The notes under the pieces: generated by a model
The model's database searches: none
Told to the model about the DNA's origin: nothing
The model's input: only the letters and a program-made list of their open reading frames with translations
Assembly: GCA_017993055.1 (NCBI GenBank)
Contig: JAGONM010000007.1
Location: 1 to 50,959 of the forward strand
DNA: 50,959 bases
Source: Armatimonadota bacterium
GTDB lineage: Bacteria > Armatimonadota > UBA5829 > DTJY01
Direction: 5' to 3'
Position numbers and translations under genes: made by a program
Shown here: positions 12,755 through 42,278 of the stretch, piece after piece
How positions within the stretch are numbered: position 1 is the first letter of the stretch
Layout of the letters: the number at the start of each line of letters is the position of its first letter

Positions 12755-12772
12755 GATCGTCCACGCCGTCGT

Positions 12773-23725: not shown

Positions 23726-24822
23726 GGCGTCACCTCGACATCGGAGTACCTGTACTCGGCGGCGCAGGCCCCCTCGCTCGATACCATGCAAGGCCCGAGG
23801 GGACGCTCCGGCCTACACGGCTTTCCGAACGCCGCGCATTCGCGAGGCGACTTGAGACCCTTGAGGATCGCGCCGCACTCGCACTCACCGCTCCCGACCT
23901 GCCGATCAGCCGGGAGTTGCACTCCCGACCGCGAGGCATCGTATGCGGCGAACTCGGAACGCAGGCGGAGACCGCTCCCGGGGATCACACCCAGCCCGCG
24001 CCACTCGGCGTCGCACGGACGGAAGACCTCTCGGATGCACCGCAACGCCGCCGGATTGCCACCCCCGCTCACAGCCCGCGAGTACTGAACCTCGACCTCG
24101 GAGCGACCTTCCGCCGCCTGCCGGACAAGCATCAAGACGGCCTGCAGAATGTCGAGCGGCTCGAAGCCCGCGACGACGCAGGGGATGCCGCACTTACTAG
24201 CGATTGGCTCATACGCGCGACTGCCGATGACCGAGGTCACGTGGCCGGGGCAGATGAAACCGTCAACGGCGACCTCCGGGTCGGACGACAGCGCCGACAT
24301 CGCCTGAGGGATCGTCTTGTGAGCCGCGAGCACGAGGTAGTTGTCTAGTCCCGCCTTGTCCGCCTCCAGAATCGAGAGAGCGACCGCGGGCGCGGTAGTC
24401 TCGAATCCGATGCCGAAAAACAAGACGCGCCGATCCGGATTTTCAGACGCGACGGTGACCGCGTCGAGCGGCGAGTAGACCACCCTCACGTCGGCACCCA
24501 TCGCCCGAACTTGCTCCAGGGAGACGCGGCTTCCCGGGACGCGAATCATGTCTCCGAACGTGGCGAGGATGGTATCAGGCGACCGGCCCATCTCGATGAA
24601 GCGGTCAATCTCGGTCTGGGAAGTGACGCAGACGGGACAGCCCGGGCCGGACACGAGCCGCAGGGAGTCGGGGAGAAGCCGCCTGATGCCGGACCGTGCG
24701 ATCGCCATCGTATGCGTGCCGCAGACCTCCATGAGCCGCATCGGGCGAGGAAGCGCGCGACGGATAGCATCAGCGAGGCGCAGGGCCGTGTCCGGATCGC
24801 GGAACTCCTCAACGTACTTCAT
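23722..24822 (-). CDS. hypD: Hydrogenase maturation protein HypD
   Basis: Iron-sulfur scaffold that, with HypC, holds the Fe(CN)2CO unit. The family cysteines are present: EVCGTHT (Cys34), SGPGCPVC (near 60-67), GIGFETTAP, and C-terminal Cys positions ending with CAAEYRYSDVEV. 366 residues, normal length. The start overlaps the hypC end by 14 bases. Confidence 0.95.
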   Translation of the reverse strand: MKYVEEFRDPDTALRLADAIRRALPRPMRLMEVCGTHTMAIARSGIRRLLPDSLRLVSGPGCPVCVTSQTEIDRFIEMGRSPDTILATFGDMIRVPGSRVSLEQVRAMGADVRVVYSPLDAVTVASENPDRRVLFFGIGFETTAPAVALSILEADKAGLDNYLVLAAHKTIPQAMSALSSDPEVAVDGFICPGHVTSVIGSRAYEPIASKCGIPCVVAGFEPLDILQAVLMLVRQAAEGRSEVEVQYSRAVSGGGNPAALRCIREVFRPCDAEWRGLGVIPGSGLRLRSEFAAYDASRSGVQLPADRQVGSGECECGAILKGLKSPRECAAFGKPCRPERPLGPCMVSSEGACAAEYRYSDVEVTP

Positions 24823-25030
24823 CGCCGAGTGTCCTCATGAGTCGAAGCGTCTCCTCGGCTTCCTCGGGCCGGACGCGCTCGATGGCAATCCCGGCGTGGA
24901 CGAGGACGTATTCGCCGACCACGACGCCTCCCAGGAGATCAACGCGAACGTTCCTGGACACGCCGTCCTGCTCAACGCGGGCCGTGTTATCCTCGATCCC
25001 TACGACCTTCATCGGGACTGCCAGACACAT
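24809..25030 (-). CDS. hypC: Hydrogenase maturation chaperone HypC
   Basis: A 73-residue chaperone that carries the iron centre from HypD to the large subunit. It starts with the invariant MCLAVPMKV, whose Cys2 binds iron. ATG at 25030 is chosen because it produces this N-terminus and shares a base with the hypF stop (TGATG). The beta-barrel pattern (NVRVDLLGGVVVGEYVLVHAG) and length match the family. Confidence 0.96.
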   Translation of the reverse strand: MCLAVPMKVVGIEDNTARVEQDGVSRNVRVDLLGGVVVGEYVLVHAGIAIERVRPEEAEETLRLMRTLGDEVR

Positions 25031-27306: not shown

Positions 27307-27926
27307 TCCAGCCACTTCCCGCAACCCGCGCCGGTCGAGCATGAGACTTCGATCAGTTCCGCGTCGGCGTTGACTTCCGCGAGGGTTCGCCTGAAGAGCG
27401 CCAGATCGAACTCCAGGTACTCCGCGAGGTCGAGCTTATTCAGCACGACACTGTCCGCGAGGCTGAACGTCCCCGGATACTTGGCGACCTTGTCGTCACC
27501 CTCGGGAAGACTGCAGACGACGGCCCGCACCGTCTCTCCGAGATCGAACTGCGCGGGACATACGAGATTCCCAACGTTCTCGATGAGCAGTACGTCGAGG
27601 GACGAGACGTCAAGGCACTCCAGCGCCTTGCCGATCATGCGGGCATCGAGGTGACACGCGCCGCCCGTGTTGATCTGAACCACCGGAGCGCCGAGCCGTG
27701 AGATGCGGTCTGCATCGAGAGAGGTGGCGATATCACCCTCGAGGACGCCGACCCTGAACCGACCGGCCACGCGCCGAATCGTCTCCTCGACCAGACTGGT
27801 CTTGCCCGCTCCCGGCGACCCCATGAGGTTGACGACGAGCAGCCCCGCGTCGGCGAAACGCTTCCGAAGCGCTTCGGCGGACCGATCGTTCTCGTCAAGT
27901 ACTCGGCGCGCCAACGGTATCCGCAT
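27258..27926 (-). CDS. hypB: Nickel-insertion GTPase HypB
   Basis: SIMIBI GTPase that drives nickel insertion. Walker A GSPGAGKTS, the metal-site motif GGACHLDA, ENVGNLVCPA and the guanine-specificity motif NKLDL are seen. It lacks the His-rich nickel-storage N-terminus found in some homologues. 222 residues. Its start lies inside the hypA end (32-base overlap), so the two are coupled. Confidence 0.96.
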   Translation of the reverse strand: MRIPLARRVLDENDRSAEALRKRFADAGLLVVNLMGSPGAGKTSLVEETIRRVAGRFRVGVLEGDIATSLDADRISRLGAPVVQINTGGACHLDARMIGKALECLDVSSLDVLLIENVGNLVCPAQFDLGETVRAVVCSLPEGDDKVAKYPGTFSLADSVVLNKLDLAEYLEFDLALFRRTLAEVNADAELIEVSCSTGAGCGKWLEWLESKLSHGQAGDCG

Positions 27927-28266
27927 GCTCTACCTCAATGGAATCAACGTAGAATTCTCTTCCGCCGACGAGCTTTCCTTTGCCCGCCTGGCACTGAGGG
28001 CATGCGAACTGACCGTCGAGAGGTTCATACTCTATCTCACACTCGGCGCAGAGGTACCTGACCGGAAGCATCTGCACGTCTAGCCTGGCGCCTTCGGCCG
28101 CCGTGCCGCGCGACACGATACCGAAGTAGAACGCGATGGAATCCGGGTCGAATGTGGACCACTCACCGGACTTGATGCAGATTCTCGTGACTCTGCGCGC
28201 GCCGACTCGCCCGGCCTCCGCCACAGCGATATCCAGAATGCTCTTCGTTGCGGTCAGTTCGTGCAT
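27895..28266 (-). CDS. hypA: Nickel chaperone HypA
   Basis: Delivers nickel with HypB. It begins MHE, giving the nickel-binding N-terminus, and has a structural zinc site of two CxxC pairs (CAEC and CPQC) near residues 73-94. 123 residues. The ATG overlaps the stop of the upstream HyfF-like gene (TGATG), so structural and maturation genes form one translationally coupled unit. Confidence 0.95.
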   Translation of the reverse strand: MHELTATKSILDIAVAEAGRVGARRVTRICIKSGEWSTFDPDSIAFYFGIVSRGTAAEGARLDVQMLPVRYLCAECEIEYEPLDGQFACPQCQAGKGKLVGGREFYVDSIEVEHADTVGAPST

Positions 28267-29825
28267 CAGGGCACAGCTCCCGATCCACCATGCATAGTCG
28301 CGGTCATGGCGGGCTGCCTGGAGCCGACGCTCTGCACTACCTCGGCCGCGGCCTTGAGAGGTTGATAGACAGCGCGAGGATATACCCCTATCAGGAGGCA
28401 GAGCAGCGCGAGTACGACCATCGAGACAGTCACGGACAGCGGGGATTCACGAACGGAGGCCGCCGAGACCGCCGCGCTCTCACCGCCCCAGAAGACCGAT
28501 TTCGCCGCCTTGGCGAGGACGACCAGCGTCACCAGGCTGGCGGCGATCCCGATTATGACGGCCCACCAAGCGTGGATATCGGTGCCGGAGACAAAGAGAG
28601 CCAGCTTGCTCTGGAACCCGTTGAACGGAGGAATCCCCGACACCGCCAGCGCGCCGACAAGGAAGCAGAACCCGGTGATCGGCATCTTCTTCGCCACACC
28701 GCCGAGTTCGGATATCCTGCGTGCTCCCGTCGCGTAGATCACCGAACCCGCCGAGAGGAAGAGCAGGGCCTTTGCGATCGCGTGGTTCAGCATGTGGAAC
28801 AACCCGGCGTAGATGCCTAGGTACGTACCGACGCCAAACCCCATCAGCACGTAGCCGATCTGGCTCACCGATGAGTAGGCAAGCATACGCTTGAGATCGT
28901 CCTGCGCGAGCGCCATCAGGTCGCCGATCACGAGGGTGAACACGCCCAGCGCGAGCAGGAATGAAGCGATCGGAGGAAACGCGGGGTAGAAGAGCGTTAC
29001 AGTGCGGACCAGGGCGTATATCGCCACCTTTAGCATCACTCCCGACAGCAGTGCCGAGACGGGGGTCGGAGCTTCAGCATGGGCGTCCGGCAACCACGGG
29101 TGGAAAGGCGCAACCCCCGCTTTCGTCCCGAATCCCACGATCAGGAACGCCGAGGCAAGTACAACCGTAGCTCTCGGGAAGGAGCTGGCCGCCAGTTTCA
29201 ACTGCGAGAGCATCAGGGCGCGGTGACCATCGAGCAGGCCCGCGCCCGTCGCATAGACCAGCACACAGCCGAAGAGGGAGAACGTGATGCCGACGGTCAG
29301 CAGCATAAGGTACTTGTAGCCCGCCTCGAGCGACCGCTTGTCCCAATAGAACGCGACTAGCAGTCCACTCGCGATCGTGCTTGCCTCTACGGCCACGTAG
29401 AGCATGATGATGTTGTTGGAGACACACGCCCAGAGCATCGTACCGATGAAGAGCATCATCCAGCCGTAATAGGCACTCAACCGCCCAACAGTCGTGGTGT
29501 GAGGAAGTCCGCCCTCCTGCACCTGGTGGCGCATATACTTCATGGAGTAGAGCACGGCGATGAAGCCTATGCCCGAGACGAGCACGACCAGCAGGGCGCT
29601 CAAAGCATCGGCGTACAACTGGCTGTTGACTGCAGTCAGCACCCCACCGTTCAGGACCCGGCTCCCGATCAGCAACGCGACGACCAGCGCAGCGGACGAG
29701 CCGATCAGTGCCAGCGCCTCCCGGAGCGCCGAGGAGAACCGCCCGAGCGCGAGTATAAGGACTCCGGCCGCCAACGGAAGCGCCAGCAGCCAGACAGGCA
29801 GGTTCGATGCTGTTTCAGCAGGCAT
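28266..29825 (-). CDS. hyfF: Hydrogenase-4 HyfF-like antiporter-type membrane subunit
   Basis: One of three NuoL/M/N-related proton- or sodium-channel subunits in the locus. About 14 membrane spans. The conserved Glu lies in LYVAVEASTIASG and the helix-7/8 motif in PFHPWLPDAHAEAPTPVSALLSG, both closest to HyfF. ATG at 29825 is used; a GTG three codons earlier is possible. 519 residues. Coupled to hypA. Confidence 0.88.
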   Translation of the reverse strand: MPAETASNLPVWLLALPLAAGVLILALGRFSSALREALALIGSSAALVVALLIGSRVLNGGVLTAVNSQLYADALSALLVVLVSGIGFIAVLYSMKYMRHQVQEGGLPHTTTVGRLSAYYGWMMLFIGTMLWACVSNNIIMLYVAVEASTIASGLLVAFYWDKRSLEAGYKYLMLLTVGITFSLFGCVLVYATGAGLLDGHRALMLSQLKLAASSFPRATVVLASAFLIVGFGTKAGVAPFHPWLPDAHAEAPTPVSALLSGVMLKVAIYALVRTVTLFYPAFPPIASFLLALGVFTLVIGDLMALAQDDLKRMLAYSSVSQIGYVLMGFGVGTYLGIYAGLFHMLNHAIAKALLFLSAGSVIYATGARRISELGGVAKKMPITGFCFLVGALAVSGIPPFNGFQSKLALFVSGTDIHAWWAVIIGIAASLVTLVVLAKAAKSVFWGGESAAVSAASVRESPLSVTVSMVVLALLCLLIGVYPRAVYQPLKAAAEVVQSVGSRQPAMTATMHGGSGAVP

Positions 29826-29864
29826 ATCGCACACCTCTCTATGACGAGACGACCCGTCCAGCGG

Positions 29865-30524
29865 CTACCAGTGCAGTTCGGAAAGCTGATGGGTGTCCGT
29901 CGAGCCGAACTTCTCCCTGATGCCGCCGATGATGTAGAGCAGCAGGTAGACGGTCACGACAACCTCGGTCGCAATGCCGGCCAGGGCAGTCTCCTCCATC
30001 GTCGGAGCGAGACTGACCAAGCTCAGATGCACACCGTTCTCCAGCAAGCACAGGCCGATTACCGTCTTGATCGCATCGCGCCTGGTGAGTATCGCGTAGA
30101 TTCCGAGGATGAAGACGGTGAACGCAACGGCAAGGTTCGTCTGCGCGATCTCACCCAACTCCCCGCCGACGCCGATGAATACCCCGGCGTGCATATGGGT
30201 CAGCTTGTACATCACCGCGAGCAGAGCTATCAGTAGGACCGCCGACACACCGAATCCGATGATGGGCTTCGTCTCCTGCTCCGCCCCGGCAGTCGCGCGC
30301 CAGAGGAACCACGGGACGAGTACCGCCTTTGTAACGAGAGCCGTCGCCGCCCAATAGAGCAGAGCGGTGTTAAGCGGCGAGTACGCGGTCAGCAGCCCGC
30401 AGATCAGCAGCGCCTGGAAGAGGTAGGCGATCGTCGCGTGACGGAGGTTCCTTGCCTCCACGGCGGCGAAGCTCGTGAAGATCATTATCAGACTGAGTGC
30501 ATGAACAAGATCAGGATTAACCAT
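29865..30524 (-). CDS. hyfE: Hydrogenase-4 HyfE-like membrane subunit
   Basis: About 219 residues, six to seven membrane spans. The second half (IGLCLLENGVHL to the EVVVTVYLLLYIIGGIREKFGS stretch) resembles NuoK/MrpC and is typical of HyfE. ATG at 30524 is chosen because the residues before it are charged and out of character. It lies between the NuoH-like and HyfF-like genes, the same order as in hyf operons. Confidence 0.87.
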   Translation of the reverse strand: MVNPDLVHALSLIMIFTSFAAVEARNLRHATIAYLFQALLICGLLTAYSPLNTALLYWAATALVTKAVLVPWFLWRATAGAEQETKPIIGFGVSAVLLIALLAVMYKLTHMHAGVFIGVGGELGEIAQTNLAVAFTVFILGIYAILTRRDAIKTVIGLCLLENGVHLSLVSLAPTMEETALAGIATEVVVTVYLLLYIIGGIREKFGSTDTHQLSELHW

Positions 30525-30528
30525 ACGC

Positions 30529-31425
30529 TCACACTCCGATCGCGGCGAAGGCGAGGGCCGCCAGCGCCACAAACAGGACTCTGCTCATGTAGGTCATCGC
30601 GTGGTCAATGCGAAGCCTTGGGCTCACCGCCTCGACGACTGCAGCGAGGACGAACAGTACGATTACCTTCAGCAGAGCAATCAGAACCGCAAGAGGCCAG
30701 ACAGCGACTGCGGGCCAAGGGACAAACAACTGCACCAGGATGAACGCATACACGAGCTGGCGTACGAGGAGAGCGATCTTCATGAGCGCGAGATTCGGAC
30801 CGCTTACCTCCACCATCGGACCATCCACGATCTCGCTCTCGGCTTCGGCGATGTCGAAGGGAAGCCGGCCCATCGTCGCTTGGAGCGCGAGGAACAGCGC
30901 CACTCCTGCGCCCGCCATGGAGAGCGAAGGACCGTTGGCCGAGTTCCAGGCAGCCATCTCCCCAAGGCGCATCGAGCCGCTCTTTACTGCGGCGGTGATG
31001 AGCGCAGCCACGACGATCGGCTCGACCGAGAGGAGCATCATGATCTCGCGGGCCGCCCCTGTCTGGGCGAACGGGTTGCCGGAAGCCGCCGCCATGAGGA
31101 TGACCGCCGCCGCACCCAGCGTCAGGAAGTATATCCAGGTGACCATGTCGCCCGGAGCCGCATCGGCACCCACACCCATCGGCGTGAGTACGGCCGCCAC
31201 GAGAAACGCCGCCAGAGCCGCGGCGGGAGCGTACCTGAACACCAGGCTCGGCGTACAGCGGAGGTCTTCCTTCCCAAGCAGCTTGAAGATGTCAATGTAA
31301 GGCTGGACGATCGGCGGCCCCTTGCGCGAATGGATGACGGCCCTAACCTTCCGGGCCACTCCATCGAGCATTGGGGCGGCCAGCAGGGCTATCGCGCCGT
31401 TTATCACCAGTACTTGAACGGACAT
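30529..31425 (-). CDS. hyfC: Hydrogenase NuoH/HyfC-like membrane subunit
   Basis: Links the peripheral hydrogenase arm to the antiporter-like arm, as NuoH does in complex I. 298 residues with about eight spans. The quinone-chamber-like loop RLPFDIAEAESEIVDGPMVE and SRKGPPIVQPYIDIFKLLGKED are characteristic. The start follows GGAGGATGCC. It is four bases from the HyfE start. Confidence 0.93.
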   Translation of the reverse strand: MSVQVLVINGAIALLAAPMLDGVARKVRAVIHSRKGPPIVQPYIDIFKLLGKEDLRCTPSLVFRYAPAAALAAFLVAAVLTPMGVGADAAPGDMVTWIYFLTLGAAAVILMAAASGNPFAQTGAAREIMMLLSVEPIVVAALITAAVKSGSMRLGEMAAWNSANGPSLSMAGAGVALFLALQATMGRLPFDIAEAESEIVDGPMVEVSGPNLALMKIALLVRQLVYAFILVQLFVPWPAVAVWPLAVLIALLKVIVLFVLAAVVEAVSPRLRIDHAMTYMSRVLFVALAALAFAAIGV

Positions 31426-31438
31426 GGCATCCTCCGAA

Positions 31439-33436
31439 CTACTTCACGAGCGCAAACAGCAGCGCCACAACGACTATCATCCCCGCGACCTGCCATATCA
31501 TGTATATCTGCGGCACGCCAATGTGTGAGCGGCTGACCTTGTCCACGAACCTTCCGCTCCCGCGGAGCGCCGGGCCATACAGCCACTTGTCGAGATCGAG
31601 CGCGGCCCGAATCCGCCCGAGGCTTGGTAGGCGCGGGATCGCCAGGCGCGGGTAGACATGAGCGAAGGCCTCATTGAACGGCGAGTAGAACCCTTTCGCC
31701 CTGAAGCGTACCTCGTCGTCAAGGTGCTCCTCGCCGCCGTACCAGCTCGATACGACCCGCATAGACGCGCGGCCGGAAGCTCGGAGCACCTCGGCCAGCA
31801 CGAAGAAGATCAGAAACAGACCAAACAGCACGATCGGGCTCCATATCGCGGACACCGCCCCGCCCGAGGCCACCGTCATCAGACCGCCGACTCTGCCGAT
31901 TCCAAACATGTCTGCGGACGGGACGCTCATCGCGGAGGAGACAGCACCGATCGCCCTGAACGGCAGGAGACCGATCAGTATGCAGGCCAGCGCGGGCACG
32001 ACCTGCGCGAACGTCATCGTGAGGGGTATGGGCACCGCCTTCCCCGAGGACGCGGCGGGTTTCCCCAGGAATGCAATGTTGAAATACTTGAGCGAATAGG
32101 CCAACGTGCTCAACCCTACGAAGAACGCGACCACCGCCGCGACGATCAGAGGTGACAGATTGATCCCTCCGGAAATGGATGCCTGGTAGATCAGCCACTT
32201 GGATGCGAATCCGTTCATGGGGGGAAGGCCCGACAGGCTCGCGACGCCCACGAGTCCGGCCGCCGCCGCAGCCGGCATCACCACCGCCAGCCCACCAACC
32301 TTGTTGATGTCGCGCGTGCCGGTAGAGTACAGGATCGAGCCGGCGTTCATGAAAAGCAGGGACTTGTAGATCGCATCGTTCAGGATGTGGAAACCGGCCG
32401 CCAGAAGGGCCAGCATGACGAGGAGCGACATGCCCGGCGTTACCGAGAATGCAACCGCGATTCCGAGCGCAAGGAAGATATAGCCCATCTGGCTGATGCT
32501 GGAGAATGCAAGAAGCCGTTTTGCATCGTTCTCCTTCATCGCGGTGACGCCTCCCACGAACGCCGAGAGGGTACCCAGGAAGACGATCACCAAACCCCAG
32601 GTCGTCAGTTCGGACGCGGTTCCGACTCCGGGCAGCACGTCCCAGAACACGCGGATGACTCCGTATGCGCCCAGCTTGATCATCACGCCGGAGAGAATCG
32701 CGGAGACTCCCGACGGCGCCGCGGGGTGAGCATCCGGCAGCCAGTCGCCCATTGGGAAGATGCCTGCCTTCGTGGAAAACGCGATCAGGTACAGCGCGAG
32801 GAGGAAGCCGCGCATCGCCACCGACAGCGCTCCGAGACCTTCGCCGTGCGCCTGGAACGACCACGACCCGGTCCCGCTCCAGAGAACAATCGCGGAAACG
32901 AGCAATCCTGCGGTGGCGACATGCGTCATGATGAAGTACTTGAACCCCGCCCGAACCGCTCGCGGGTCCGAGCGCTCGAACGTCACCAGAAAATACGAGG
33001 CGAGGGTCATCAGTTCCCATAGAACAATGAAGAAGAGCCAGTCCGCGACGGCGACGACACCGATCATCCCCGCGATGAAGAGTTGGAGCAGCGAGTAGAA
33101 CCTGCGCGGACTCTCCTTCTTGTAGAACCCCATGTAACCGACGGAGTAGATGGTCGCGATCAGCGACACGGCGGTAATGACCATCAGGAAGCCGGCGCCG
33201 AGAGGATCGAGCATAACCGCCAGTTGGCTGCCGAAACCGGGTAGAGCGAACACGAAGCCCTCGACCGCGCGCCCATTCACAAGCACCTTCAAGCCATCAG
33301 CCCAGGCGAGAATCGTCGCGGTGGCGACGAACGCCGCCGCCACCCACCCGCCGGACCTCCACGAGCGGGCTGAGCCGACCGCCAGCGAACCCGCCAAAAG
33401 GACAAGGAACGCTAGTCCGACGTTAGTGTATATCAT
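31439..33436 (-). CDS. hyfB: Hydrogenase HyfB/HycC-like antiporter-type membrane subunit
   Basis: Large membrane subunit, 665 residues. The TM core carries Glu in VLWELMTLASYF and the channel motif GDWLPDAHPAAPSGVSAILSGVMIK split over helices 7-8. The C-terminal extension, ending after DDEVRFRAKGFYSPFNEAFAH, resembles HycC/HyfB. It would take part in proton or sodium translocation. It starts 75 bases after the NuoL-like gene. Confidence 0.9.
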   Translation of the reverse strand: MIYTNVGLAFLVLLAGSLAVGSARSWRSGGWVAAAFVATATILAWADGLKVLVNGRAVEGFVFALPGFGSQLAVMLDPLGAGFLMVITAVSLIATIYSVGYMGFYKKESPRRFYSLLQLFIAGMIGVVAVADWLFFIVLWELMTLASYFLVTFERSDPRAVRAGFKYFIMTHVATAGLLVSAIVLWSGTGSWSFQAHGEGLGALSVAMRGFLLALYLIAFSTKAGIFPMGDWLPDAHPAAPSGVSAILSGVMIKLGAYGVIRVFWDVLPGVGTASELTTWGLVIVFLGTLSAFVGGVTAMKENDAKRLLAFSSISQMGYIFLALGIAVAFSVTPGMSLLVMLALLAAGFHILNDAIYKSLLFMNAGSILYSTGTRDINKVGGLAVVMPAAAAAGLVGVASLSGLPPMNGFASKWLIYQASISGGINLSPLIVAAVVAFFVGLSTLAYSLKYFNIAFLGKPAASSGKAVPIPLTMTFAQVVPALACILIGLLPFRAIGAVSSAMSVPSADMFGIGRVGGLMTVASGGAVSAIWSPIVLFGLFLIFFVLAEVLRASGRASMRVVSSWYGGEEHLDDEVRFRAKGFYSPFNEAFAHVYPRLAIPRLPSLGRIRAALDLDKWLYGPALRGSGRFVDKVSRSHIGVPQIYMIWQVAGMIVVVALLFALVK

Positions 33437-33511: not shown

Positions 33512-34996
33512 TCACGGCACGCCAACGAGCCTGGCCACCATCGGCATCCCGGCGAACGGGGCGAGCAGTGTCAGCAGGACCATAGTCGCGAGCACCCAGT
33601 TCATGGCTGCGGAGGCATGAAGCTCCGATTCGGCCTCTGCCTCGTGGGTGACAGCCACCACCGCCTCTTTCGATCTGCCGAAAAAGACCTGCTGGCCGAT
33701 CCAGAGGAACCATCCGAACGAGATCAGGCTTTCGATCAACACGAGCGTCAGGGCGATCGGGCCGAACGCTCCCGGCACCTGAAGAGCGCCCGCAAGGACA
33801 TACATCTTGCTCCAGAAACAGGCCAAGGGGGGTATGCCGGTCAGCGCGAATGCTCCGACGAAGAAAGCGAGAGTTGCGAGAGGCATCCTGGACGCGAGGC
33901 CGGAGAGCTTCGATATGCTCCGTGTCCCTGTCGCGTAGGCGACCGTACCGACGGTCAGAAACAGCGTCGTCTTGGCGAAGGCATGCATGAATATGTGGAG
34001 CACCGCGCCCCGATACGCTATCGAGGCCCCGAGGGCCCCGATGCCTAGCCCGAGCAGGATATATGCAAGCTGAGCGATCGTAGAGTAAGCGAGCAACCGC
34101 TTGAGATCGTCCTGGAAGAAGTACAGGTAGAGCGCCGCGAACATCGTGATGAGCGCGCCTATCGAGAGAACCAATCCCATGCCGGCCGGAAGGTCCCATC
34201 CCGCCGAAAGAAGCCTGGCGATCAGAAAGACCCCCGCCTTGACCATCGCGGCGGCATGCAGGTACGCGCTGATGGGCGTCGGAGCGGCCATCGCATCCGG
34301 CAGCCAGGTGTGAAAAGGTATCTGCGCGCTCTTCGACCATGCCGCGATCATGAACAACGCGAACGCCCCGGCACGCACCTGGGGCATCATCAGCCCGAGC
34401 GCGTCGAACCCCATCGAGCCGGTCGCACCGAAGACCCAGACGAGCCCGCCGATGAAGAACAATCCTCCAAAGGATGTGAATATGAGCGCCTTCAATCCCG
34501 CCTTCAGGCTCTCCTCGTTGTCATAGAACGAGATCAGCGCCCACGAACAGAGCGTAGTCATCTCCCAGAAGATCAGAAGCTGCAGGAGCGTCGGCGAAAC
34601 CGCGATCCCCGCCATCGAACCGATGAAGAGCATCAGCCAGAAGTAGTACCGCGCCTGGCCGCCGTGGACCGCGTGATCGCGGTTTCCGGGAGACAGGTAC
34701 CCACCGGAGTACACGACGATGGCTACGCCGATCACAGTGGACGCGACCAGCATGACCAGCGCTAGAGGATCGAGCTGATAGCCGAACAGGCCCTTCGATG
34801 CGCCTTCACCGAGCCAGGGCATAGCCCCGAACAGACGGGTCTCGACCGGCAACCGCCACGCCAGCACCACCGCCGAAACCGCGGCGACCAGCGAGAAGAC
34901 CGCAGCCGCGTATTTCGCCCCGCGGTCCCTGACGGCGATGCCGACCAGCGCTCCCAGAAATGGAACAGCCACCACAGCGATTGCCAAAGGTTGCAT
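33512..34996 (-). CDS. NuoL/HyfD-like antiporter-type membrane subunit
   Basis: Third antiporter-like subunit, 494 residues, about 14 spans. FWEMTTLCSWALISF carries the key Glu, and PFHTWLPDAMAAPTPISAYLHAAAM with a following Lys is closest to NuoL/MrpA. Its place between the small-subunit gene and HyfB, and the lack of another HyfD candidate, make it the HyfD equivalent by position. Three such subunits imply several ion channels per electron pair. Confidence 0.88.
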   Translation of the reverse strand: MQPLAIAVVAVPFLGALVGIAVRDRGAKYAAAVFSLVAAVSAVVLAWRLPVETRLFGAMPWLGEGASKGLFGYQLDPLALVMLVASTVIGVAIVVYSGGYLSPGNRDHAVHGGQARYYFWLMLFIGSMAGIAVSPTLLQLLIFWEMTTLCSWALISFYDNEESLKAGLKALIFTSFGGLFFIGGLVWVFGATGSMGFDALGLMMPQVRAGAFALFMIAAWSKSAQIPFHTWLPDAMAAPTPISAYLHAAAMVKAGVFLIARLLSAGWDLPAGMGLVLSIGALITMFAALYLYFFQDDLKRLLAYSTIAQLAYILLGLGIGALGASIAYRGAVLHIFMHAFAKTTLFLTVGTVAYATGTRSISKLSGLASRMPLATLAFFVGAFALTGIPPLACFWSKMYVLAGALQVPGAFGPIALTLVLIESLISFGWFLWIGQQVFFGRSKEAVVAVTHEAEAESELHASAAMNWVLATMVLLTLLAPFAGMPMVARLVGVP

Positions 34997-35059: not shown

Positions 35060-35581
35060 TCAACCGCGCGTCATGACAGGCCGGTCCTGCCAGACCCTCA
35101 TGTGCTCCTCGAGATCGAAGCCCGGAGGCAGATGCGCCTCGTGACGCGGCTCGACCTTCTTGGGAACGAGGCCGAGGGCCAGCGCCGCGCCGTACACGAT
35201 GGCTTCCGGCCTCGGAGGGCACCCCGGGATGTACACGTTCACCGGGATAACCGTATCGACGCCGCCGAGGATGTTGTACGTGTCGAACCAGATGTTGCCT
35301 CCGACGGCGCACGCCCCGACGGCGATGACGACCTTGGGATCTGGGGTCGCCTCATAGAGCCGCCTGAGCGCGGGAGCGACCTGCCTGCTGACGCCACCAG
35401 CGACGACAAGAGCATCGGCGTGCCTCGGGCTTCCGATCAGCTTCATTCCGAAACGCTCGACATCGTAGTACGGCGTGAGCACGTCTATCACCTCGATGTC
35501 GCATCCGTTGCACGATCCGCAGTTCGTGTGAAAGAGCCAGAGCGACTTGGGAAACATCCTTTTGCAGAACCCGCCGATCAT
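35060..35581 (-). CDS. hyfI: [NiFe]-hydrogenase small subunit (HycG/HyfI/NuoB-like)
   Basis: Carries the proximal [4Fe-4S] cluster. Likely ligands are Cys21 and Cys24 (CGSCNGC), Cys91 (GACAVGG) and Cys121 (PGCPPRP). 173 residues, without signal peptide, as expected for group 4 enzymes, which face the cytoplasm. The ATG overlaps the ferredoxin-subunit stop (ATGA). Confidence 0.95.
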   Translation of the reverse strand: MIGGFCKRMFPKSLWLFHTNCGSCNGCDIEVIDVLTPYYDVERFGMKLIGSPRHADALVVAGGVSRQVAPALRRLYEATPDPKVVIAVGACAVGGNIWFDTYNILGGVDTVIPVNVYIPGCPPRPEAIVYGAALALGLVPKKVEPRHEAHLPPGFDLEEHMRVWQDRPVMTRG

Positions 35582-36108
35582 GAGCCGTCCTCCTCACCCC
35601 GCACGAGCGGCCCGGCCGGAATGAAGTCAAGCGGCGGCTTGAGCGGGAACGTGCCACGCTCGTTTTCCGCGCCCGGCCCGCGTCCGCGCCACCGCTTGCT
35701 GTGGAACTTGTCTATCGCATTGTCAATCTCGAAACACCTGCCGCACCGCTGACAACTCGACATCCACAGAGTCATCTCGGACTCGAGGTCCGACTTGTCG
35801 GGCGTCGCGGTCTCGAACTGCTGGGTCGGCCAGATGGCCTGCTCCGGGCAGACCTCATAGCACCTCGCGCACTGGATGCACCTGTCGAGATGGAACGCGA
35901 GTCTGGAGACCTCGCCGATGTCCTCGATGACGATGCACCTCGGAGGGCAGACATTCGCACAGCCGCCACATCCGATGCACTTGCGGGCATCGAACTCGAT
36001 CTTGCCACGAAACTTCGGCGGGGCGGCAGCCGGCTCGAACGGATACTTGAGAGTCACGCGGCCCGCGCCGAAACATATCACTGCTTCCTTGAGCTTCGCT
36101 TTGAACAT
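35578..36108 (-). CDS. hyfH: Ferredoxin-like subunit (HycF/HyfH/NuoI-like) with extra CxxCxxC
   Basis: Two [4Fe-4S] binding motifs: Cys44/47/50/54 (CIGCGGCANVCP) and Cys77/80/83/87 (CIQCARCYEVCP). It would pass electrons between the catalytic core and the HydBG/Fdh-like arm. The C-terminal tail has a further CQRCGRC (Cys119/122/125), with no fourth ligand next to it. 176 residues. It starts 15 bases after the large-subunit gene. Confidence 0.93.
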   Translation of the reverse strand: MFKAKLKEAVICFGAGRVTLKYPFEPAAAPPKFRGKIEFDARKCIGCGGCANVCPPRCIVIEDIGEVSRLAFHLDRCIQCARCYEVCPEQAIWPTQQFETATPDKSDLESEMTLWMSSCQRCGRCFEIDNAIDKFHSKRWRGRGPGAENERGTFPLKPPLDFIPAGPLVRGEEDGS

Positions 36109-36123
36109 ATGAGCCTACTTCCT

Positions 36124-37797
36124 TCAGGGCCCACCGCGCCTAGACATCTCCTCGAGCTCTTCCCTGGAGTAGATCCTGATGCCGCCGGTGTTCACGTCGA
36201 GCGCCTCCACCCTCTCGGTGCAGGAGAAGCACGGATCGTAGCTGCCGATGCCGATCGGAACGTCGGCGAGCTGCTCGCCCTTGATCATGCAACCGACCGC
36301 CTGCAGGTTCTGGAACGTCGGCGCCCTGACGCGCCAGCGATACGGGCGGTTCTCGTCACCCGTGAGGACGTAATGGTGAGCCTCGCCCCGACCGGCTTCG
36401 ACTGAGCAGAGGCCTACCTTGCCATAAGGCGGGCTAAGGTCAATCTCGGCCATGAGAGGTCCGGCGGGCATGTCGTCGAGCGCCTTCCGCACAAGCCGGA
36501 TGGACTCAAATATTTCGAAAACTCTCACGAGAGTGCGCGCCCAGATATCGCACCCGTCCTGCACCTGAATCTGAACGCCGAGTTCGGCGTAGGCGGCGTA
36601 CGGGTGGTCCAGGCGCGCATCAATAGGTATGTTAGAGCCACGCGCAACCGGTCCGACTACGGCAAGACTGCGGGCCTCCTCCTCGGTGAGGATTCCAACA
36701 CCCTTCAATCTAGCCAGTATCGTGGTGTCAATGACTACGGCATCCACAACGGCCTTGAACTCCTGCTCCACCTTGTCGAGCACGCGCCTGGCATCGTCCG
36801 CCGCATCGGCGTCAATGTCGAATCGCACCCCGCCGACGAGATTCGACGAGTAGTGCTTGCGATTGCCGGTGACGCGCTCCATGAGCCACATGACCGGCTC
36901 TCGGATGCGCCAGGCCTGCATCAGTATGGTGTCGAACCCGATGATGTGTCCGGCAAGCCCGACCCAGAGCAGGTGGCTGTGCAGCCGTTCGAGTTCGAGG
37001 AGTATCGAGCGGATATACTTGGCCCTCATCGGCACGTCAATGCCGGCGGCGTCCTCGACGGCCTGGCAGTAGGCACACGAGTGAACCTGCCCGCATATCC
37101 CGCATATCTGCTGGGCGACAAACGGCACCTGGTTGTAGTTCAACTCGCTGTCGCCAAGCTTCTCGACGGCGCGGTGGTTGTAGAACCCTCGGTAGTCCGA
37201 ACCGATGACCCGCTCGCCGTCGAGGAAGAGCCGGAAGTAAGCGGGCTCCTCCAGCGTCGGGTAGAATGGGCCGAGAGGAACGACGGTCGTCCCTTCTGGG
37301 GCCTCCTTTCTGGGGGGAGCGTTCCCAGGCTCTGACGGGAAGCGGTCGTTGTAGCCGAACTCCCGCCGCAGTGGATGGATGCCTTCGGGGAAGTCGTCCG
37401 GAAGGATGAGCCTGCGCGGGTCCGGGTGGTTCTCGGGCACGATCCCGAGCATGTCATACGCCTCCCGCTCTGACCAGTCGGCCGCCGGCACCTGCGGCGT
37501 GATGGAAGGAACCTTGAGGTCGTTCTCAGGTATCTCGGACTGCAGGATCAGGAACGTCTTGTCCTTGTCGAAGGAGAGGATGTACGAAACCCTGAAGGCG
37601 CCGCCCCGCGGGCGCATATCGGTGCCGACGCTGATCACGAACCGCGCTCCGAGCTGGTTCACCGCCCGCCTGACCACTATCGGCAGTTCGTCCCGGGGGA
37701 TGGTCAGCACGTACTGATCCTTGACATGCTCATCTACATCCTGCATGACATCAGGAAAATGCGTGGCCAAATCCATCAGAAAACCGTGGCGTTCCAT
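36124..37797 (-). CDS. hyfG: Group 4 [NiFe]-hydrogenase large subunit with N-terminal NuoC domain
   Basis: A 557-residue catalytic subunit of the HycE/HyfG type. The N-terminal NuoC-like domain shows SEREAYDMLGI (about 109-119). The L1 motif ICGICGQVH (Cys232, Cys235, His239) and L2 motif DPCFSCTER (Cys523, Cys526) supply the nickel-iron ligands. About 28 residues follow the Arg of CTER, a removable tail as in HycE. ATG at 37797 overlaps the protease stop as TAATG; an in-frame TTG 15 bases upstream is less likely. Confidence 0.95.
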   Translation of the reverse strand: MERHGFLMDLATHFPDVMQDVDEHVKDQYVLTIPRDELPIVVRRAVNQLGARFVISVGTDMRPRGGAFRVSYILSFDKDKTFLILQSEIPENDLKVPSITPQVPAADWSEREAYDMLGIVPENHPDPRRLILPDDFPEGIHPLRREFGYNDRFPSEPGNAPPRKEAPEGTTVVPLGPFYPTLEEPAYFRLFLDGERVIGSDYRGFYNHRAVEKLGDSELNYNQVPFVAQQICGICGQVHSCAYCQAVEDAAGIDVPMRAKYIRSILLELERLHSHLLWVGLAGHIIGFDTILMQAWRIREPVMWLMERVTGNRKHYSSNLVGGVRFDIDADAADDARRVLDKVEQEFKAVVDAVVIDTTILARLKGVGILTEEEARSLAVVGPVARGSNIPIDARLDHPYAAYAELGVQIQVQDGCDIWARTLVRVFEIFESIRLVRKALDDMPAGPLMAEIDLSPPYGKVGLCSVEAGRGEAHHYVLTGDENRPYRWRVRAPTFQNLQAVGCMIKGEQLADVPIGIGSYDPCFSCTERVEALDVNTGGIRIYSREELEEMSRRGGP

Positions 37798-38348
37798 TAG
37801 CTTGCTCTCCAATCAGGAGATGAAGTGCCGTACCCGGGCCGGGGGAGAATCTCGACCCCTGCCTCACCGCGACTTGCTCGAACACCTGCATTCAGACACG
37901 AGACCAGGATGCCCGCAAGGTTGCCCGCCGAGTGCTCCACCTCCGCGCACATTGAAGCGCCTTCGCGCACGTCATGCGGCTGGACCGCCAGCAGACAGCA
38001 CTCGCAGCCGAGTTCGTTCTCCAGATACTCCATCGTCAGCTTCAGCGGCGCACGGTGCGTGTCGAACCCTGTCGCTCGCAGGTCCGAGGGCAGAAGCAGA
38101 GCCGCCTCTCCCGGCTCTCCGCCGACATCGGCCGCATCTATGAAGAGCACGCTGTCCGGCTTGGATTCCCGCACCCTCCAGGTTTCGATCTCGGGCGACG
38201 GGCCGCCGTCAATCACATCCTCGACACCCGCCTCGGCAAGCAACCGGGCCATCATCGGACCGACGCCGTCATCACCCCGCCTGGAATCTCCGACTCCCAC
38301 GACGACGACTCGCCCCTTCATCATCCTCCGCAGATCGTCTCTCAGCAT
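37797..38348 (-). CDS. hycI: Hydrogenase maturation endopeptidase (HycI-like)
   Basis: Removes the C-terminal tail of the large subunit after nickel insertion. The family motif GVGDSRRGDDGVG (about residues 18-30) and the nickel-sensing acidic DAADVGG region are present. 183 residues. It starts five bases after the HydG-like stop and overlaps the large-subunit gene, so it is probably dedicated to that enzyme. Confidence 0.9.
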   Translation of the reverse strand: MLRDDLRRMMKGRVVVVGVGDSRRGDDGVGPMMARLLAEAGVEDVIDGGPSPEIETWRVRESKPDSVLFIDAADVGGEPGEAALLLPSDLRATGFDTHRAPLKLTMEYLENELGCECCLLAVQPHDVREGASMCAEVEHSAGNLAGILVSCLNAGVRASRGEAGVEILPRPGYGTSSPDWRAS

Positions 38349-38352
38349 CGGC

Positions 38353-39237
38353 TCAGATCCCCAGTTCCGGCAGGGCGCGCATCTGCCTGTAGGTGAATAC
38401 CGGCCCCTCAGTGCAGAGATAAACGTGATTCACGCAACAATGGCCGCACTTGCCGACCCCGCACTTCATGTACCGCTCCAAGCTGGTCACTACCCGGTCC
38501 TCGGAGAAGCCCTTCTTGAGAAGCCCGAGGGTCACGAACTTGATCATTATCGGCGGACCGCATGTCAGGGCGACGGCGTTCGGGGCATCGAGCTCGAGTT
38601 GGTCGAAGAGGGTGGTCACCACCCCGACATGGCCCGTCCAGTGCTCGTCGGCGATGTCAACCGTCTCCATCAGATGCAGGTCATCTCTTTGAGCCCACGC
38701 CTCCAAGTCGTACTTGAAGTCGCGGTCGGCGGGAGTGCGCGCTCCGTAGAGCAGCCACACGTCGCCATACTCACTGCGGTCGGCCAGGATTTTCAGTATC
38801 GCAGGCCTAAGCGGGGCGAGGCCGCAGCCGCCGCTGACGATCAGGACGTCTCTGCCCTTCATCTCCTCGAGCGGCCAGCAGTTGCCGAGCGGTCCTCGGA
38901 TGCCGACCTTGTCGTCCTCGCGAAGTGAGTGCATCGCACGGGTGACAGCACCGCGCTCCACGACCGTCAGCTCGAAGAACTCCTTCTCAAGCGGGCTCGA
39001 GGCGAACCCGATCGGGGCCTCGCCCGCGCCGAATACAGTGACCTGGACGAACTGTCCCGGCTCCCACGAGAACGACTTCGCGTACTGCGGATCCTCGAAA
39101 GCGAGCCTGAAGGTCTTTGTGTCTGGGGTCTCGTCCAGGATGGACTTCACTACGGCGACCATCGGGATGTACAGGTCGCCGCTCGGATTGTCGGTCACAC
39201 CCCACATGTTCCTCGGCTTAGCTGCGGTGAGTTCCAC
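38353..39237 (-). CDS. hydG: HydG-like FAD/NAD(P)-binding diaphorase subunit
   Basis: Resembles the gamma subunit of sulfhydrogenases and PyrK-type reductases. The FAD-binding segment (QFVQVTVFGAGEAPIGFASSP, split) lies near residues 60-85, the nucleotide motif VSGGCGLAPLRPAI near 140, and a [2Fe-2S] site at Cys259, 264, 267 and 275. It would exchange electrons with NAD(P)H. 294 residues from a GTG start that follows GAGGTG. Located directly after the HydB-like gene. Confidence 0.88.
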   Translation of the reverse strand: MELTAAKPRNMWGVTDNPSGDLYIPMVAVVKSILDETPDTKTFRLAFEDPQYAKSFSWEPGQFVQVTVFGAGEAPIGFASSPLEKEFFELTVVERGAVTRAMHSLREDDKVGIRGPLGNCWPLEEMKGRDVLIVSGGCGLAPLRPAILKILADRSEYGDVWLLYGARTPADRDFKYDLEAWAQRDDLHLMETVDIADEHWTGHVGVVTTLFDQLELDAPNAVALTCGPPIMIKFVTLGLLKKGFSEDRVVTSLERYMKCGVGKCGHCCVNHVYLCTEGPVFTYRQMRALPELGI

Positions 39238-39240
39238 TTA

Positions 39241-40323
39241 CTACACCTCGACTTTCCCACTGCTCGGTAATAGATGCTCGTGCATCGCGCGCCTGATGCG
39301 CTTGACGACCTCCGGCAGACCAAGGTTCGTCAGGCAAGAGGTGATGCACCTGCCGCATCCGACGCATCCGTGCCGGCCATCCCGGGATATGTATTGATAG
39401 CTGGCCTTGTGGTAGAACCGACGCTGAACGCGGCTGCCGAACGTCGCCCGCGGGTTGTGCCCGCTCGCCTCGCGGGTGAACCCGGAATACTGGCAGGAGT
39501 CCCAGGATCTGCACCTTGCATACCAGCCGTCTTCGTGCCGCACATCGTCCACCGTGTAGCAGGTGCACACGGGGCAGAGGTTCGTGCAGGCGCCACACTT
39601 GTAGCACGTCGAACCGAGGTAGTCCCAGATCTCGGACGGCACTTCGTCCGCAGATATGTAGTTGACCGCCTTAGCGATGTAGGCGGTCGTATTGAAAAGA
39701 CTGTCCGCCTGGAGCAGGAGCCTCGCCCGCTCGTCCAGATCGCGCGATTCGGCCTTGCCCAGCATATAGGCACCCGGTGCGGTGGCCTGCTCTCCCTTGT
39801 CGGATCCGATCTCATACAAAAAGCGGTCGCCGAGATCCGTGAGTTGCACGTCGAAGCCGGATTCAAGAGTAGGGCCCGCGTCGCAGCAGATGCAGAAACA
39901 CTCCTCGCGGGGAGGTGTATTGCAGGCGAGGCTGAAGAGCGTCGTGTTGTCCAGCCGCTTCCTGTAGCACGGATCAACGATCTCGCCGCCGAAGAACTTC
40001 TCCTGGAACCGGACCGCCGAGACATCGCAGGAACGAATACCGACGATCGCCTGTTTGGGAGGCTCCCCGGCAGGCTCGATCTCAACCCGCGTCCCATTCC
40101 GGTAGCGAAACATGTCCTCGAACGGGGGAAGCAGGAATCGTTTCGGGGGCAGGATGTCGTGCCCGTAGTCCCAGACGATGTCCTTGGGCGAATCCAGAAC
40201 GTCGAACATCGAGTCACCGCCGAAGAGATGCCTCGGCGCGATGAGCCTCATTTCTTTGGCGACCGCGGCGAAGAATATCACGGCATCGGACTTCTTGAGG
40301 ATCGAAGGTTCTCTTTCGCTCAT
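39241..40323 (-). CDS. hydB: HydB-like iron-sulfur subunit
   Basis: Resembles the beta subunit of sulfhydrogenases and anaerobic sulfite reductase A. Two [4Fe-4S] sites are at Cys240/243/246/250 and Cys320/323/326/330; other cysteines include a CFCICC stretch at 142-147. It normally bridges the HydG flavin to the hydrogenase. 360 residues. The ATG overlaps the Fdh-like stop (ATGA), so both are made together. Confidence 0.88.
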   Translation of the reverse strand: MSEREPSILKKSDAVIFFAAVAKEMRLIAPRHLFGGDSMFDVLDSPKDIVWDYGHDILPPKRFLLPPFEDMFRYRNGTRVEIEPAGEPPKQAIVGIRSCDVSAVRFQEKFFGGEIVDPCYRKRLDNTTLFSLACNTPPREECFCICCDAGPTLESGFDVQLTDLGDRFLYEIGSDKGEQATAPGAYMLGKAESRDLDERARLLLQADSLFNTTAYIAKAVNYISADEVPSEIWDYLGSTCYKCGACTNLCPVCTCYTVDDVRHEDGWYARCRSWDSCQYSGFTREASGHNPRATFGSRVQRRFYHKASYQYISRDGRHGCVGCGRCITSCLTNLGLPEVVKRIRRAMHEHLLPSSGKVEV

Positions 40324-42278
40324 TTGACCGCCTCAACCTTGACCGGCCGCGCCTTGAATGCAGGCACGCCGGAGATGGGATCGCCTTCGTAACCGGCGAA
40401 CGCATTTGGGGAGTCGCCGCCGAAGAAGTGCGGCACGTGGACGTGACCCGCCGGCACCGAATTACTGATAACGAGCGTGCGCACCAGCGACGCCGAATCC
40501 GTCGAGACCCTCACCGGCGCACCAGGCCTGAGCCCAAGTTTCTCGGCATCGGCTTCGCACAGTTCGACGTAGGACTCCGGGTACTCGCGGGCGAGCACCG
40601 AAGAGTGAGCGGACATCGTACCCGTCCGGTGGTGGTAGTTGACCCGACTTGCGATCAGCACAAACTCACGATCCTGCATCTGGCCAGAAGTCGGTTCGGC
40701 GTCTGGGACCGGGATCAACTTGGGCGACGCGGCGTTGAGAGGCCACGGCTCGCCCCAGCCTTGCTCCAGCATCTCATAGTTCACGCCCCCATAGCAGTCC
40801 ACGTTCTTCGCGATCTCCGCCATGACCTTGCCCGAACTGCTCTCCAGATTACCTCCAAGCGCCGAGGCGAGACTGGAGAGAATCTCCAGATCCGGTCTGG
40901 ACTCCCCGAGCGGTTCGATAACCTTGCGGACTCTCTGAACGCGCCGCTCGATGTTGGTAAATGTGCCGTCCTTCTCAAGGAAGGAGCACGCAGGGAATAC
41001 GACGTCCGCCAGCCGCGCGGTCTCCGTCAGATACGGATCGCAGACAGCGAGGAACTCGACCTTGTCAAGGGCAGCCAGAGTGCGTTCGGTGTCAGGGGCG
41101 GAGAGCGCAAGGTTCTCGCCGAACACCAGCAGCGCCTTGAGGTCGCCCGTCTCACAGGCACGGATCATATCTACTGAGGACATCCCCGGCGACTCCGGGA
41201 GCCGACAAGCCCACGCGGATTCCCATTTCTCCCTCACCTCCGCATCGCCGATATCGCCGTATCCTGGGAGCAGTTCGCGCGCCAGACCCATATCGGACGC
41301 ACCCTGCGCGTTGTTCTGAGCTCTTAGCGGCAGGACGTACCCACCCAGCAGAAGAGCCACGTCGGCGAGCGCGCCGACAGTCGGCGTGGACCGGGCCTGC
41401 TGAAGCACCCCGAGGCCGAACATGACTACGGATGGAGGAGCCGAGGCCAGGATGTCCGCGGTTCGCCTGACATCGTCACCGGACAGCCCACACGTACCGG
41501 CGGCCGCATCAACCGACAGGCCGTTCAGCGACACCCTGAGCTCCTCGAAACCCGGCATCCGGGGCGCGTCCTCGACGTACAACGAGCAGTCTATAATGGT
41601 CTTGAGCAGCGCTCGAATCCACACGAGGTCAGTCCCGGCGCGCGGACGGATGAACTGCTCGGCGTACGGTTCGAGGCGCGTCGTTCGCGAATCCACGACG
41701 ACTACCCGGCACCCTCCCGCGGCGGCGGTCTCGATGCGCGAGCCGACGTGGGCAACCTGCTCCGTGACATTGGCTCCGACGATGAGCATCGAGCCGGCGT
41801 GCGCCACGGCGTCGAGTCCGACCTGGGCGGCGGGGATTCCAAGGGCCGGGGCCAGCCCGGAGATGATCGAGGCATCGTACAGCCGAGACGAGCCGTCGAT
41901 GTTGGAGGTACCGAGGATGCTCCTCGCGAACTTGACGAGGGAGTAGCATTCCTCATTGGTGGTCTTCGCGGAGCCGATGACGCCGACGCTCTGAGGACCG
42001 CTGTCCGAGGAGATGCGTTTGAGGGCGGACGCCGTGAAAGAAACGGCCTCATCCCATGAGACGGGCTGCAACGAATCGCCGGTTCGCTTGAGGGGCAGGC
42101 GCAATCTACTCGTGCCGAGAACGGCAGGGATACCGTTCCACCCCTTCACGCAGAGTCTGCCATTCGCAACCGGGTGGTTGCCGCTGGGACAGAGGGTTGC
42201 TACGCGACCGTTACTCTGCTCTACATAGACCCCACATCCGCAACTGCAGAACCCGCAGGTCGTGAGAACTACACTCAT
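40320..42278 (-). CDS. Formate-dehydrogenase-like molybdopterin oxidoreductase lacking the catalytic Sec/Cys
   Basis: A 652-residue member of the bis-MGD molybdopterin family closest to FdhF/FdhA. One [4Fe-4S] cluster is coordinated by Cys8, Cys11, Cys15 and Cys43, with Lys45 (LCVKG) for electron transfer. QNNAQGASDMG with Arg319 is retained. The canonical NxDxCARxCH motif reads NIDGSSRLYD (126-135): the molybdenum ligand is Tyr134 (codon TAC) and the catalytic His is Asp135. It may act on another substrate, or serve as an electron-transfer or structural part like NuoG. It follows GGGAGGG and begins the operon. Confidence 0.85.
   Translation of the reverse strand: MSVVLTTCGFCSCGCGVYVEQSNGRVATLCPSGNHPVANGRLCVKGWNGIPAVLGTSRLRLPLKRTGDSLQPVSWDEAVSFTASALKRISSDSGPQSVGVIGSAKTTNEECYSLVKFARSILGTSNIDGSSRLYDASIISGLAPALGIPAAQVGLDAVAHAGSMLIVGANVTEQVAHVGSRIETAAAGGCRVVVVDSRTTRLEPYAEQFIRPRAGTDLVWIRALLKTIIDCSLYVEDAPRMPGFEELRVSLNGLSVDAAAGTCGLSGDDVRRTADILASAPPSVVMFGLGVLQQARSTPTVGALADVALLLGGYVLPLRAQNNAQGASDMGLARELLPGYGDIGDAEVREKWESAWACRLPESPGMSSVDMIRACETGDLKALLVFGENLALSAPDTERTLAALDKVEFLAVCDPYLTETARLADVVFPACSFLEKDGTFTNIERRVQRVRKVIEPLGESRPDLEILSSLASALGGNLESSSGKVMAEIAKNVDCYGGVNYEMLEQGWGEPWPLNAASPKLIPVPDAEPTSGQMQDREFVLIASRVNYHHRTGTMSAHSSVLAREYPESYVELCEADAEKLGLRPGAPVRVSTDSASLVRTLVISNSVPAGHVHVPHFFGGDSPNAFAGYEGDPISGVPAFKARPVKVEAVK

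What the first reader, a model, noticed from the sequence alone, without database searches (positions are those of the whole stretch)
41871..41904. Fdh-like subunit with Tyr in place of the molybdenum-ligand Sec/Cys and Asp in place of the catalytic His
The active-site motif reads NIDGSSRLYD where formate dehydrogenases have NxDxCARxCH or xUH. The codon is TAC, so neither Cys nor Sec. The FdhF-type TQH motif is also altered to LQQ near residues 292-294. Yet the [4Fe-4S] ligands (Cys8/11/15/43), Lys45 and Arg319 with QNNAQG remain. This points to either new substrate chemistry with an unusual Mo/W ligand, or a retired catalytic subunit kept for electron transfer, as with NuoG.
Basis: partly seen in the sequence, partly recalled or inferred. 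Interest (0 to 1): 0.75.

Follow-up and report, generated by a model that had tools for sequence, protein, structure and literature searches.

The report
Retired formate-dehydrogenase subunit in hydrogenase
In a group of uncultured bacteria (Armatimonadota), a membrane hydrogenase carries a formate-dehydrogenase subunit that has lost its metal-binding site, and often the cell can no longer make that cofactor, but the subunit keeps its iron-sulfur cluster site and sits beside a NAD(P)H-oxidising module, apparently replaying how part of respiratory complex I may have arisen.

Summary
In detail: a 652-aa FdhA-like protein (40320-42278, minus strand) reads NIDGSSRLYD where formate dehydrogenases have NxDxCARxC/U-H, and LQQ for TQH. 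The [4Fe-4S] cysteines, Lys45 and Arg319 remain. Tyr134-Asp135 is invariant in five close homologues (59-61% identity, two families), so it is no sequencing error. Five near-complete genomes with the Tyr-Asp form have no MoaC, MoeA or FdhD, and the window's genome has no other molybdopterin-oxidoreductase-family protein. The gene heads a conserved Hyf-type energy-converting [NiFe]-hydrogenase operon with HydB and HydG. In 34 such subunits from 11 Armatimonadota families Cys and His are both lost, in many different ways, while the four cluster cysteines stay. The tree puts the retired sequences on one side of one branch. In one nested hydrogenase clade a canonical FdhA plus a HycB/CooF-like protein has replaced retired FdhA and HydBG. 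Most likely the complex links NAD(P)H and H2, with the retired subunit as iron-sulfur relay and scaffold, analogous to NuoG. Prior art: a similar 'enigmatic' operon in Saganbacteria. No biochemistry exists.

The parts
40320..42278 (-). Retired FdhA-like subunit (FdhA*), 652 aa; Fe4S4, molybdopterin and dinucleotide-binding domains all present; heads the operon
   Evidence: model pLDDT 88.9, TM 0.96 to solved FDHs
41874..41903 (-). Lost active-site motif NIDGSSRLYD (canonical NxDHCARxC/U-H); Tyr134 codon 41877-41879, Asp135 codon 41874-41876
42150..42257 (-). [4Fe-4S] ligands Cys8, Cys11, Cys15, Cys43; kept in all retired homologues in the alignment
41397..41405 (-). LQQ (292-294) in place of FDH TQH/TEH
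39241..40323 (-). HydB/AsrA-like [4Fe-4S] subunit (Fer4_22)
38353..39237 (-). HydG/AsrB-like FAD/NAD(P)-binding subunit with [2Fe-2S] domain
37797..38348 (-). HycI-like hydrogenase maturation protease
36124..37812 (-). Group 4 [NiFe]-hydrogenase large subunit (HycE/HyfG-like) with ligands ICGIC and DPCFSC
35578..36108 (-). HycF/HyfH/NuoI-like iron-sulfur subunit
35060..35581 (-). Hydrogenase small subunit (HyfI/NuoB-like)
33512..34996 (-). HyfD-like antiporter subunit (over the curated cut-off for hydrogenase 4 subunit D)
31439..33436 (-). HyfB-like antiporter subunit
30529..31425 (-). HyfC/NuoH-like membrane subunit
29865..30572 (-). HyfE-like membrane subunit
28266..29834 (-). HyfF-like antiporter subunit
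22715..27926 (-). [NiFe] maturation genes hypB (27258-27926), hypF (25030-27342), hypD (23722-24822), hypE (22715-23791)
   Evidence: all over curated cut-offs

Best explanation
The gene encodes a retired, molybdenum-free formate-dehydrogenase alpha subunit (FdhA*) of a Hyf-type, ion-translocating [NiFe]-hydrogenase. Proposed electron path: NAD(P)H <-> FAD and [2Fe-2S] of HydG <-> [4Fe-4S] clusters of HydB <-> the single [4Fe-4S] of FdhA* and the NuoI-like subunit <-> small subunit <-> [NiFe] site, coupled through the HyfB/C/D/E/F membrane arm to H+ or Na+ movement. FdhA* acts as iron-sulfur relay and scaffold, as NuoG does in complex I. Shown here: loss of the Mo ligand and its His, absence of cofactor-pathway markers in the Tyr-Asp genomes, retained cluster and NiFe ligands, operon conservation, a single retired lineage. 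Inferred: cofactor-free state of the protein, subunit order, NAD(P)H as partner, direction and coupling.
For: (1) Both residues replaced and conserved as Tyr-Asp in 6 genomes. (2) MoaC, MoeA and FdhD absent in G000, G223, G224, G231 and G232, all >=97% complete, while found in relatives and in 8-11 of 14 controls; only one PF00384 protein in G000. MoaC also absent in many other operon genomes, e.g. G034 (100% complete), G206-G208, G267, G270, G272. (3) Cys134 and His135 kept in none of 34 retired sequences, replaced variously or deleted; C8/C11/C15/C43 kept in all. (4) Full operon conserved with HydB and HydG, NiFe ligands intact. (5) Retired sequences lie on one side of a branch (support 99.5, with an active Nap/Nas-type outgroup falling inside the canonical side). 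(6) Three operons with canonical FdhA lack HydBG; the one read in full (L163) has a Fer4_11 (HycB/CooF-like) protein; all three genomes have MoaC. (7) dN/dS 0.108, the highest of the subunits measured but clearly purifying.
Against: No biochemistry. Many FDH-fold positions persist (61% of canonical-invariant columns, including Lys45, Arg319 and Gln325) and the model has a complete FDH fold, so a bound ligand cannot be excluded. G230 (67% complete) has MoaC, MoeA and FdhD and a second Fdh fragment. MoaE is absent even in cofactor-making relatives, so the pathway in this phylum is not textbook. Outside the phylum, L074 and L084 combine canonical FdhA, HydB, HydG and a group 4 hydrogenase, so HydBG and retirement are not strictly linked.
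Confidence: 0.8

Rival explanations
1. FdhA* is a catalytic Mo/W enzyme with Tyr as metal ligand and Asp as base, acting on a substrate other than formate.
For: Tyr-Asp invariant over two families; Lys45, Arg319 and QNNAQG kept in the Tyr-Asp clade; complete FDH fold predicted.
Against: No MoaC, MoeA or FdhD in five near-complete carriers. A large share of all columns of alignment A1 is invariant, so conservation of two residues is weak evidence. Sister lineages in the same operon slot have other residues or deletions.
Confidence: 0.04
2. FdhA* is a purely structural plug without electron-transfer role, and HydB passes electrons directly to the NuoI-like subunit.
For: FdhA* is the least conserved hydrophilic subunit apart from the HycI protease (59% against 70-83%) and some lineages have shortened it to about 545 aa.
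Against: All four cluster cysteines are kept in every aligned retired homologue despite strong divergence elsewhere.
Confidence: 0.1
3. Same retired subunit, but the complex is ferredoxin-linked or confurcating (ferredoxin plus NAD(P)H), with HydBG as only one of two inputs.
For: Stn (PMC7483475), which has a NuoG-like part and no FDH activity, is a bifurcating enzyme. NADH to H2 alone is uphill under standard conditions (own knowledge).
Against: No dedicated ferredoxin-docking subunit identified beyond HydB and the NuoI-like protein; not tested.
Confidence: 0.25

Closest known systems
NuoG/Nqo3 of respiratory complex I
   Same: FDH-alpha-related subunit without Mo ligand, kept as iron-sulfur carrier next to a flavoprotein NAD(P)H module on a Nuo/Hyf-type membrane arm
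   Different: Partners are HydB/HydG (sulfhydrogenase/Asr type) rather than NuoE/NuoF; no N-terminal 2Fe-2S ferredoxin part; scores far below the NuoG cut-off (126 against 470 bits); the [NiFe] site is intact; much closer to true FDH
Formate hydrogenlyase, Hyf/FHL-2 type (FdhF + HyfA-I)
   Same: Hyf-like membrane arm, [NiFe] large and small subunits, NuoI-like subunit, FDH-like subunit in the same operon
   Different: FDH active site lost; no HycB/HyfA-like subunit found in the operon; HydB and HydG in its place
Saganbacteria RX5A 'enigmatic' group 4 hydrogenase operon (PMC6349859)
   Same: Group 4 [NiFe] hydrogenase, Mrp-like subunits, an unclassifiable molybdopterin-type oxidoreductase, AsrA and AsrB
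QrcB, ActB and StnC (cofactor-less Mo/W-bisPGD-family or NuoG-like proteins; PMC6303296, PMC7483475)
   Same: Homologues of catalytic molybdoenzyme subunits in complexes where they do not act as molybdoenzymes
   Different: Different complexes (menaquinone reductase, alternative complex III, transhydrogenase), not energy-converting hydrogenases

Membership tests
Formate dehydrogenase alpha (FdhA/FdhF) | Cys/Sec Mo/W ligand followed by His | tested here: not met
   Tyr134-Asp135, conserved in six genomes
Formate dehydrogenase alpha (FdhA/FdhF) | Curated score (TIGR01591 cut-off 666 bits) | tested here: not met
   485 bits
Formate dehydrogenase alpha (FdhA/FdhF) | [4Fe-4S] ligands and overall fold | tested here: met
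   Cys8/11/15/43; TM 0.95-0.96 to solved FDHs
Formate dehydrogenase alpha (FdhA/FdhF) | bis-MGD cofactor available in the cell | tested here: not met
   MoaC, MoeA and FdhD absent in G000 and four other carriers
NuoG (complex I) | Curated NuoG score and N-terminal 2Fe-2S/4Fe-4S ferredoxin domain | tested here: not met
   126 against 470 bits; protein begins with the Fe4S4 domain
Group 4 [NiFe]-hydrogenase, Hyf-like | CxxC and DPCxxC NiFe ligands in the large subunit | tested here: met
   ICGIC and DPCFSC
Group 4 [NiFe]-hydrogenase, Hyf-like | Hyf-type membrane subunits | tested here: met
   HyfD over cut-off (485 against 430); HyfE and HyfF are best matches but below their cut-offs
NAD(P)H-linked sulfhydrogenase beta/gamma (HydB/HydG) | Fer4_22 subunit plus FAD/NAD/2Fe-2S subunit | tested here: met
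   Pfam domains over cut-offs; NCBIfam equivalog cut-offs not reached
Formate hydrogenlyase | Formate-dependent H2 evolution | not testable with these tools
   Biochemistry needed; active-site residues absent

The most novel reading that the evidence does not exclude
A phylum-wide family of NAD(P)H-linked energy-converting hydrogenases arose from a formate-hydrogenlyase-like ancestor by retiring FDH and adding HydBG: an independent replay, still carrying a [NiFe] site, of the step that may have produced the NuoEFG arm of complex I. In one clade the change was reversed by swapping in an active FdhA.
Probability: 0.6. Interest if true: 0.85.

Novelty: new variant of a known kind. Interest (0 to 1): 0.7.

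Why it matters
How complex I acquired its NADH-oxidising arm, with an FDH-derived NuoG that no longer works as a molybdoenzyme, is a long-standing question; a recent genome survey still describes the N-module as a later acquisition (PMC12361115). Here is a separate system on an intact hydrogenase with several stages preserved: near-canonical Tyr-Asp forms, shortened forms, and a clade with an active FDH in the same slot. That makes the retirement step open to experiment. It also means that 'formate dehydrogenase' annotations in these operons should not be read as formate metabolism.

Tried and rejected
Sequencing error or isolated mutation: rejected. Pseudogene: rejected (intact frame, dN/dS 0.108). 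Selenocysteine or recoding: the codon is TAC. Unusual Mo/W ligand: disfavoured. MoaE as cofactor marker: uninformative, absent in all 19 genomes tested including those with canonical FDH and MoaC. MoaA C-domain (PF06463): only partly sensitive, misses G235. AFOR (PF01314): none in the Tyr-Asp genomes. Literature searches for a described retired FDH in a group 4 hydrogenase gave only the Saganbacteria paper; subscription journals are mostly not held.

Full report
Observation. The 652-aa ORF at 40320-42278 on the minus strand carries NIDGSSRLYD at residues 126-135. Alignment to solved FDHs places Tyr134-Asp135 exactly on the Cys/Sec-His pair. LQQ replaces TQH at 292-294, while Cys8/11/15/43, Lys45 and Arg319 with QNNAQG are kept. 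The Pfam Fe4S4, molybdopterin and dinucleotide-binding domains are all present, and the predicted model (pLDDT 88.9, pTM 0.92) has the full FDH fold (TM 0.96 to Methylorubrum FDH1, 0.95 to E. coli FdhF).

Conservation. A search of 291 genomes of the same phylum (record titles of matching contigs show it is Armatimonadota) gave five close homologues at 59-61% identity. All have R[F/L]YDAS and LQQ. The next homologues, near 40%, are canonical FDHs with CARxC-H or CARxU-H and TQH or TEH. The whole operon FdhA-HydB-HydG-HycI-HycE-FeS-small-HyfD-HyfB-HyfC-HyfE-HyfF is conserved in G223, G224 and G232, and as far as contigs reach in G230 and G231. Against G224 (L032) FdhA* is 59% identical, HydB 70%, HydG 77%, HycE 78%, FeS 80% and the small subunit 83%; the HyfB and HyfC membrane subunits and the HycI protease are also low (40%, 59%, 59%). 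Between G224 and G223 the dN/dS of FdhA* is 0.108 and that of HycE 0.004: constrained, but the loosest of the subunits measured.

Cofactor supply. G000 has exactly one PF00384 protein, this one. MoaC, MoeA and FdhD are missing in G000, G223, G224, G231 and G232, all at least 97% complete, though the same searches find them in relatives with canonical FDH and in control genomes. G230, only 67% complete, has all three plus a second Fdh fragment; whether that is real or contamination cannot be told. One canonical carrier, G276, lacks a MoaC hit but has MoeA and FdhD, which shows the error of single markers. MoaE is missing in all 19 tested genomes including cofactor makers and was set aside. No aldehyde-ferredoxin-oxidoreductase domain was found in the Tyr-Asp genomes.

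Wider family. Searching with the hydrogenase large subunit and reading the neighbourhoods showed related operons in some 45 genomes. In the alignment of 68 FdhA-like sequences the 34 retired ones, including the six Tyr-Asp forms, keep neither Cys nor His; the site reads YD, SARLDALPG, DNFGRMVDG, SSRPQRIAD, SFYRL with a gap, VYCNN and others. All 34 keep the four cluster cysteines. They come from 11 families (f1, f5, f12, f18, f26, f27, f28, f30, f42, f43, f45); one of the 34, L031, lies on a contig whose operon context was not read. The large subunit keeps ICGIC and DPCxxC wherever the sequence is complete, apart from one unmatched first motif in L186. MoaC is absent in many of these genomes too.

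History. With the motif columns removed, the canonical sequences form one side of the tree (98). With six active Nap/Nas-type sequences added and the longest branches left out, the outgroup falls within the canonical side and the 24 retired rows stay together with support 99.5: the simplest reading is one retirement followed by divergence. Long branches among retired rows are a caution. In the hydrogenase tree three operons with canonical FdhA (L163, L168, L175) lie inside the retired group; holding the retired rows together is rejected (AU p = 0.007). Their FdhA belongs with canonical Armatimonadota FDHs. These operons lack HydBG, and L163 has a Fer4_11 HycB/CooF-like protein, a ferredoxin-thioredoxin-reductase-like protein and a redoxin instead; their genomes have MoaC. 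The FdhA slot was thus refilled with an active enzyme when the NAD(P)H module was lost (inference).

Mechanism. HydB has a Fer4_22 domain and HydG has FAD, NAD and 2Fe-2S domains; hypB, hypD, hypE and hypF are present. I propose electron exchange between NAD(P)H and H2 through HydG, HydB, FdhA* and the NuoI-like subunit, coupled to ion movement. The path, the nucleotide used, the direction and the coupling are inferred. Because the NADH/H2 couple is uphill at standard conditions (own knowledge), the complex may run towards NAD(P)+ reduction, run at low H2, use the ion gradient, or take ferredoxin as second input.

Known relatives. NuoG is the functional analogue, but membership fails (126 against 470 bits; no N-terminal ferredoxin domain). 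FdhA membership fails on the ligand and on the curated score. Cofactor-less family members are known in Qrc and Act (PMC6303296), and StnC, annotated as FDH, shows no formate oxidation (PMC7483475). The Saganbacteria RX5A operon with an unclassifiable molybdopterin oxidoreductase, AsrA and AsrB (PMC6349859) is the closest report; its authors could not identify it as an FDH. A survey of Armatimonadota hydrogenases lists groups 4b and 4g among others and, in the passages read, does not discuss such a subunit (PMC10290634).

Verdict. The kind (an Mo-free FDH relic as electron relay) is known from complex I; its occurrence with HydBG on an energy-converting hydrogenase with intact NiFe ligands, with preserved stages and a reversal, appears new in detail.

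Noticed in passing
L074 10001-21776; L084 10001-22049: Clostridia-related contigs pair a canonical FdhA with two HydB copies, HydG and a group 4 hydrogenase: a possible intermediate with formate, NAD(P)H and H2 sites together.
   Followed up: partly
L163 9102-10723: A canonical-FdhA hydrogenase operon carries a ferredoxin-thioredoxin-reductase-like protein and a redoxin between fdhA and the HycB/CooF-like gene.
   Followed up: no
19 Armatimonadota genomes: MoaE is not found even in genomes with MoaC and canonical FDH, suggesting a divergent molybdopterin synthase.
   Followed up: no
L018, L027, L030: Several Armatimonadota FDHs have an in-frame TGA at the catalytic position (CART*H), probably selenocysteine.
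   Followed up: no
window 42598-42671 (-): tRNA-Gln (TTG) lies just upstream of the operon on the same strand.
   Followed up: no
G061:C22 (L184 about 11378-12913): The FdhA-like gene matches in two separate pieces that appear to lie in different reading frames, perhaps a frameshift or assembly error.
   Followed up: no
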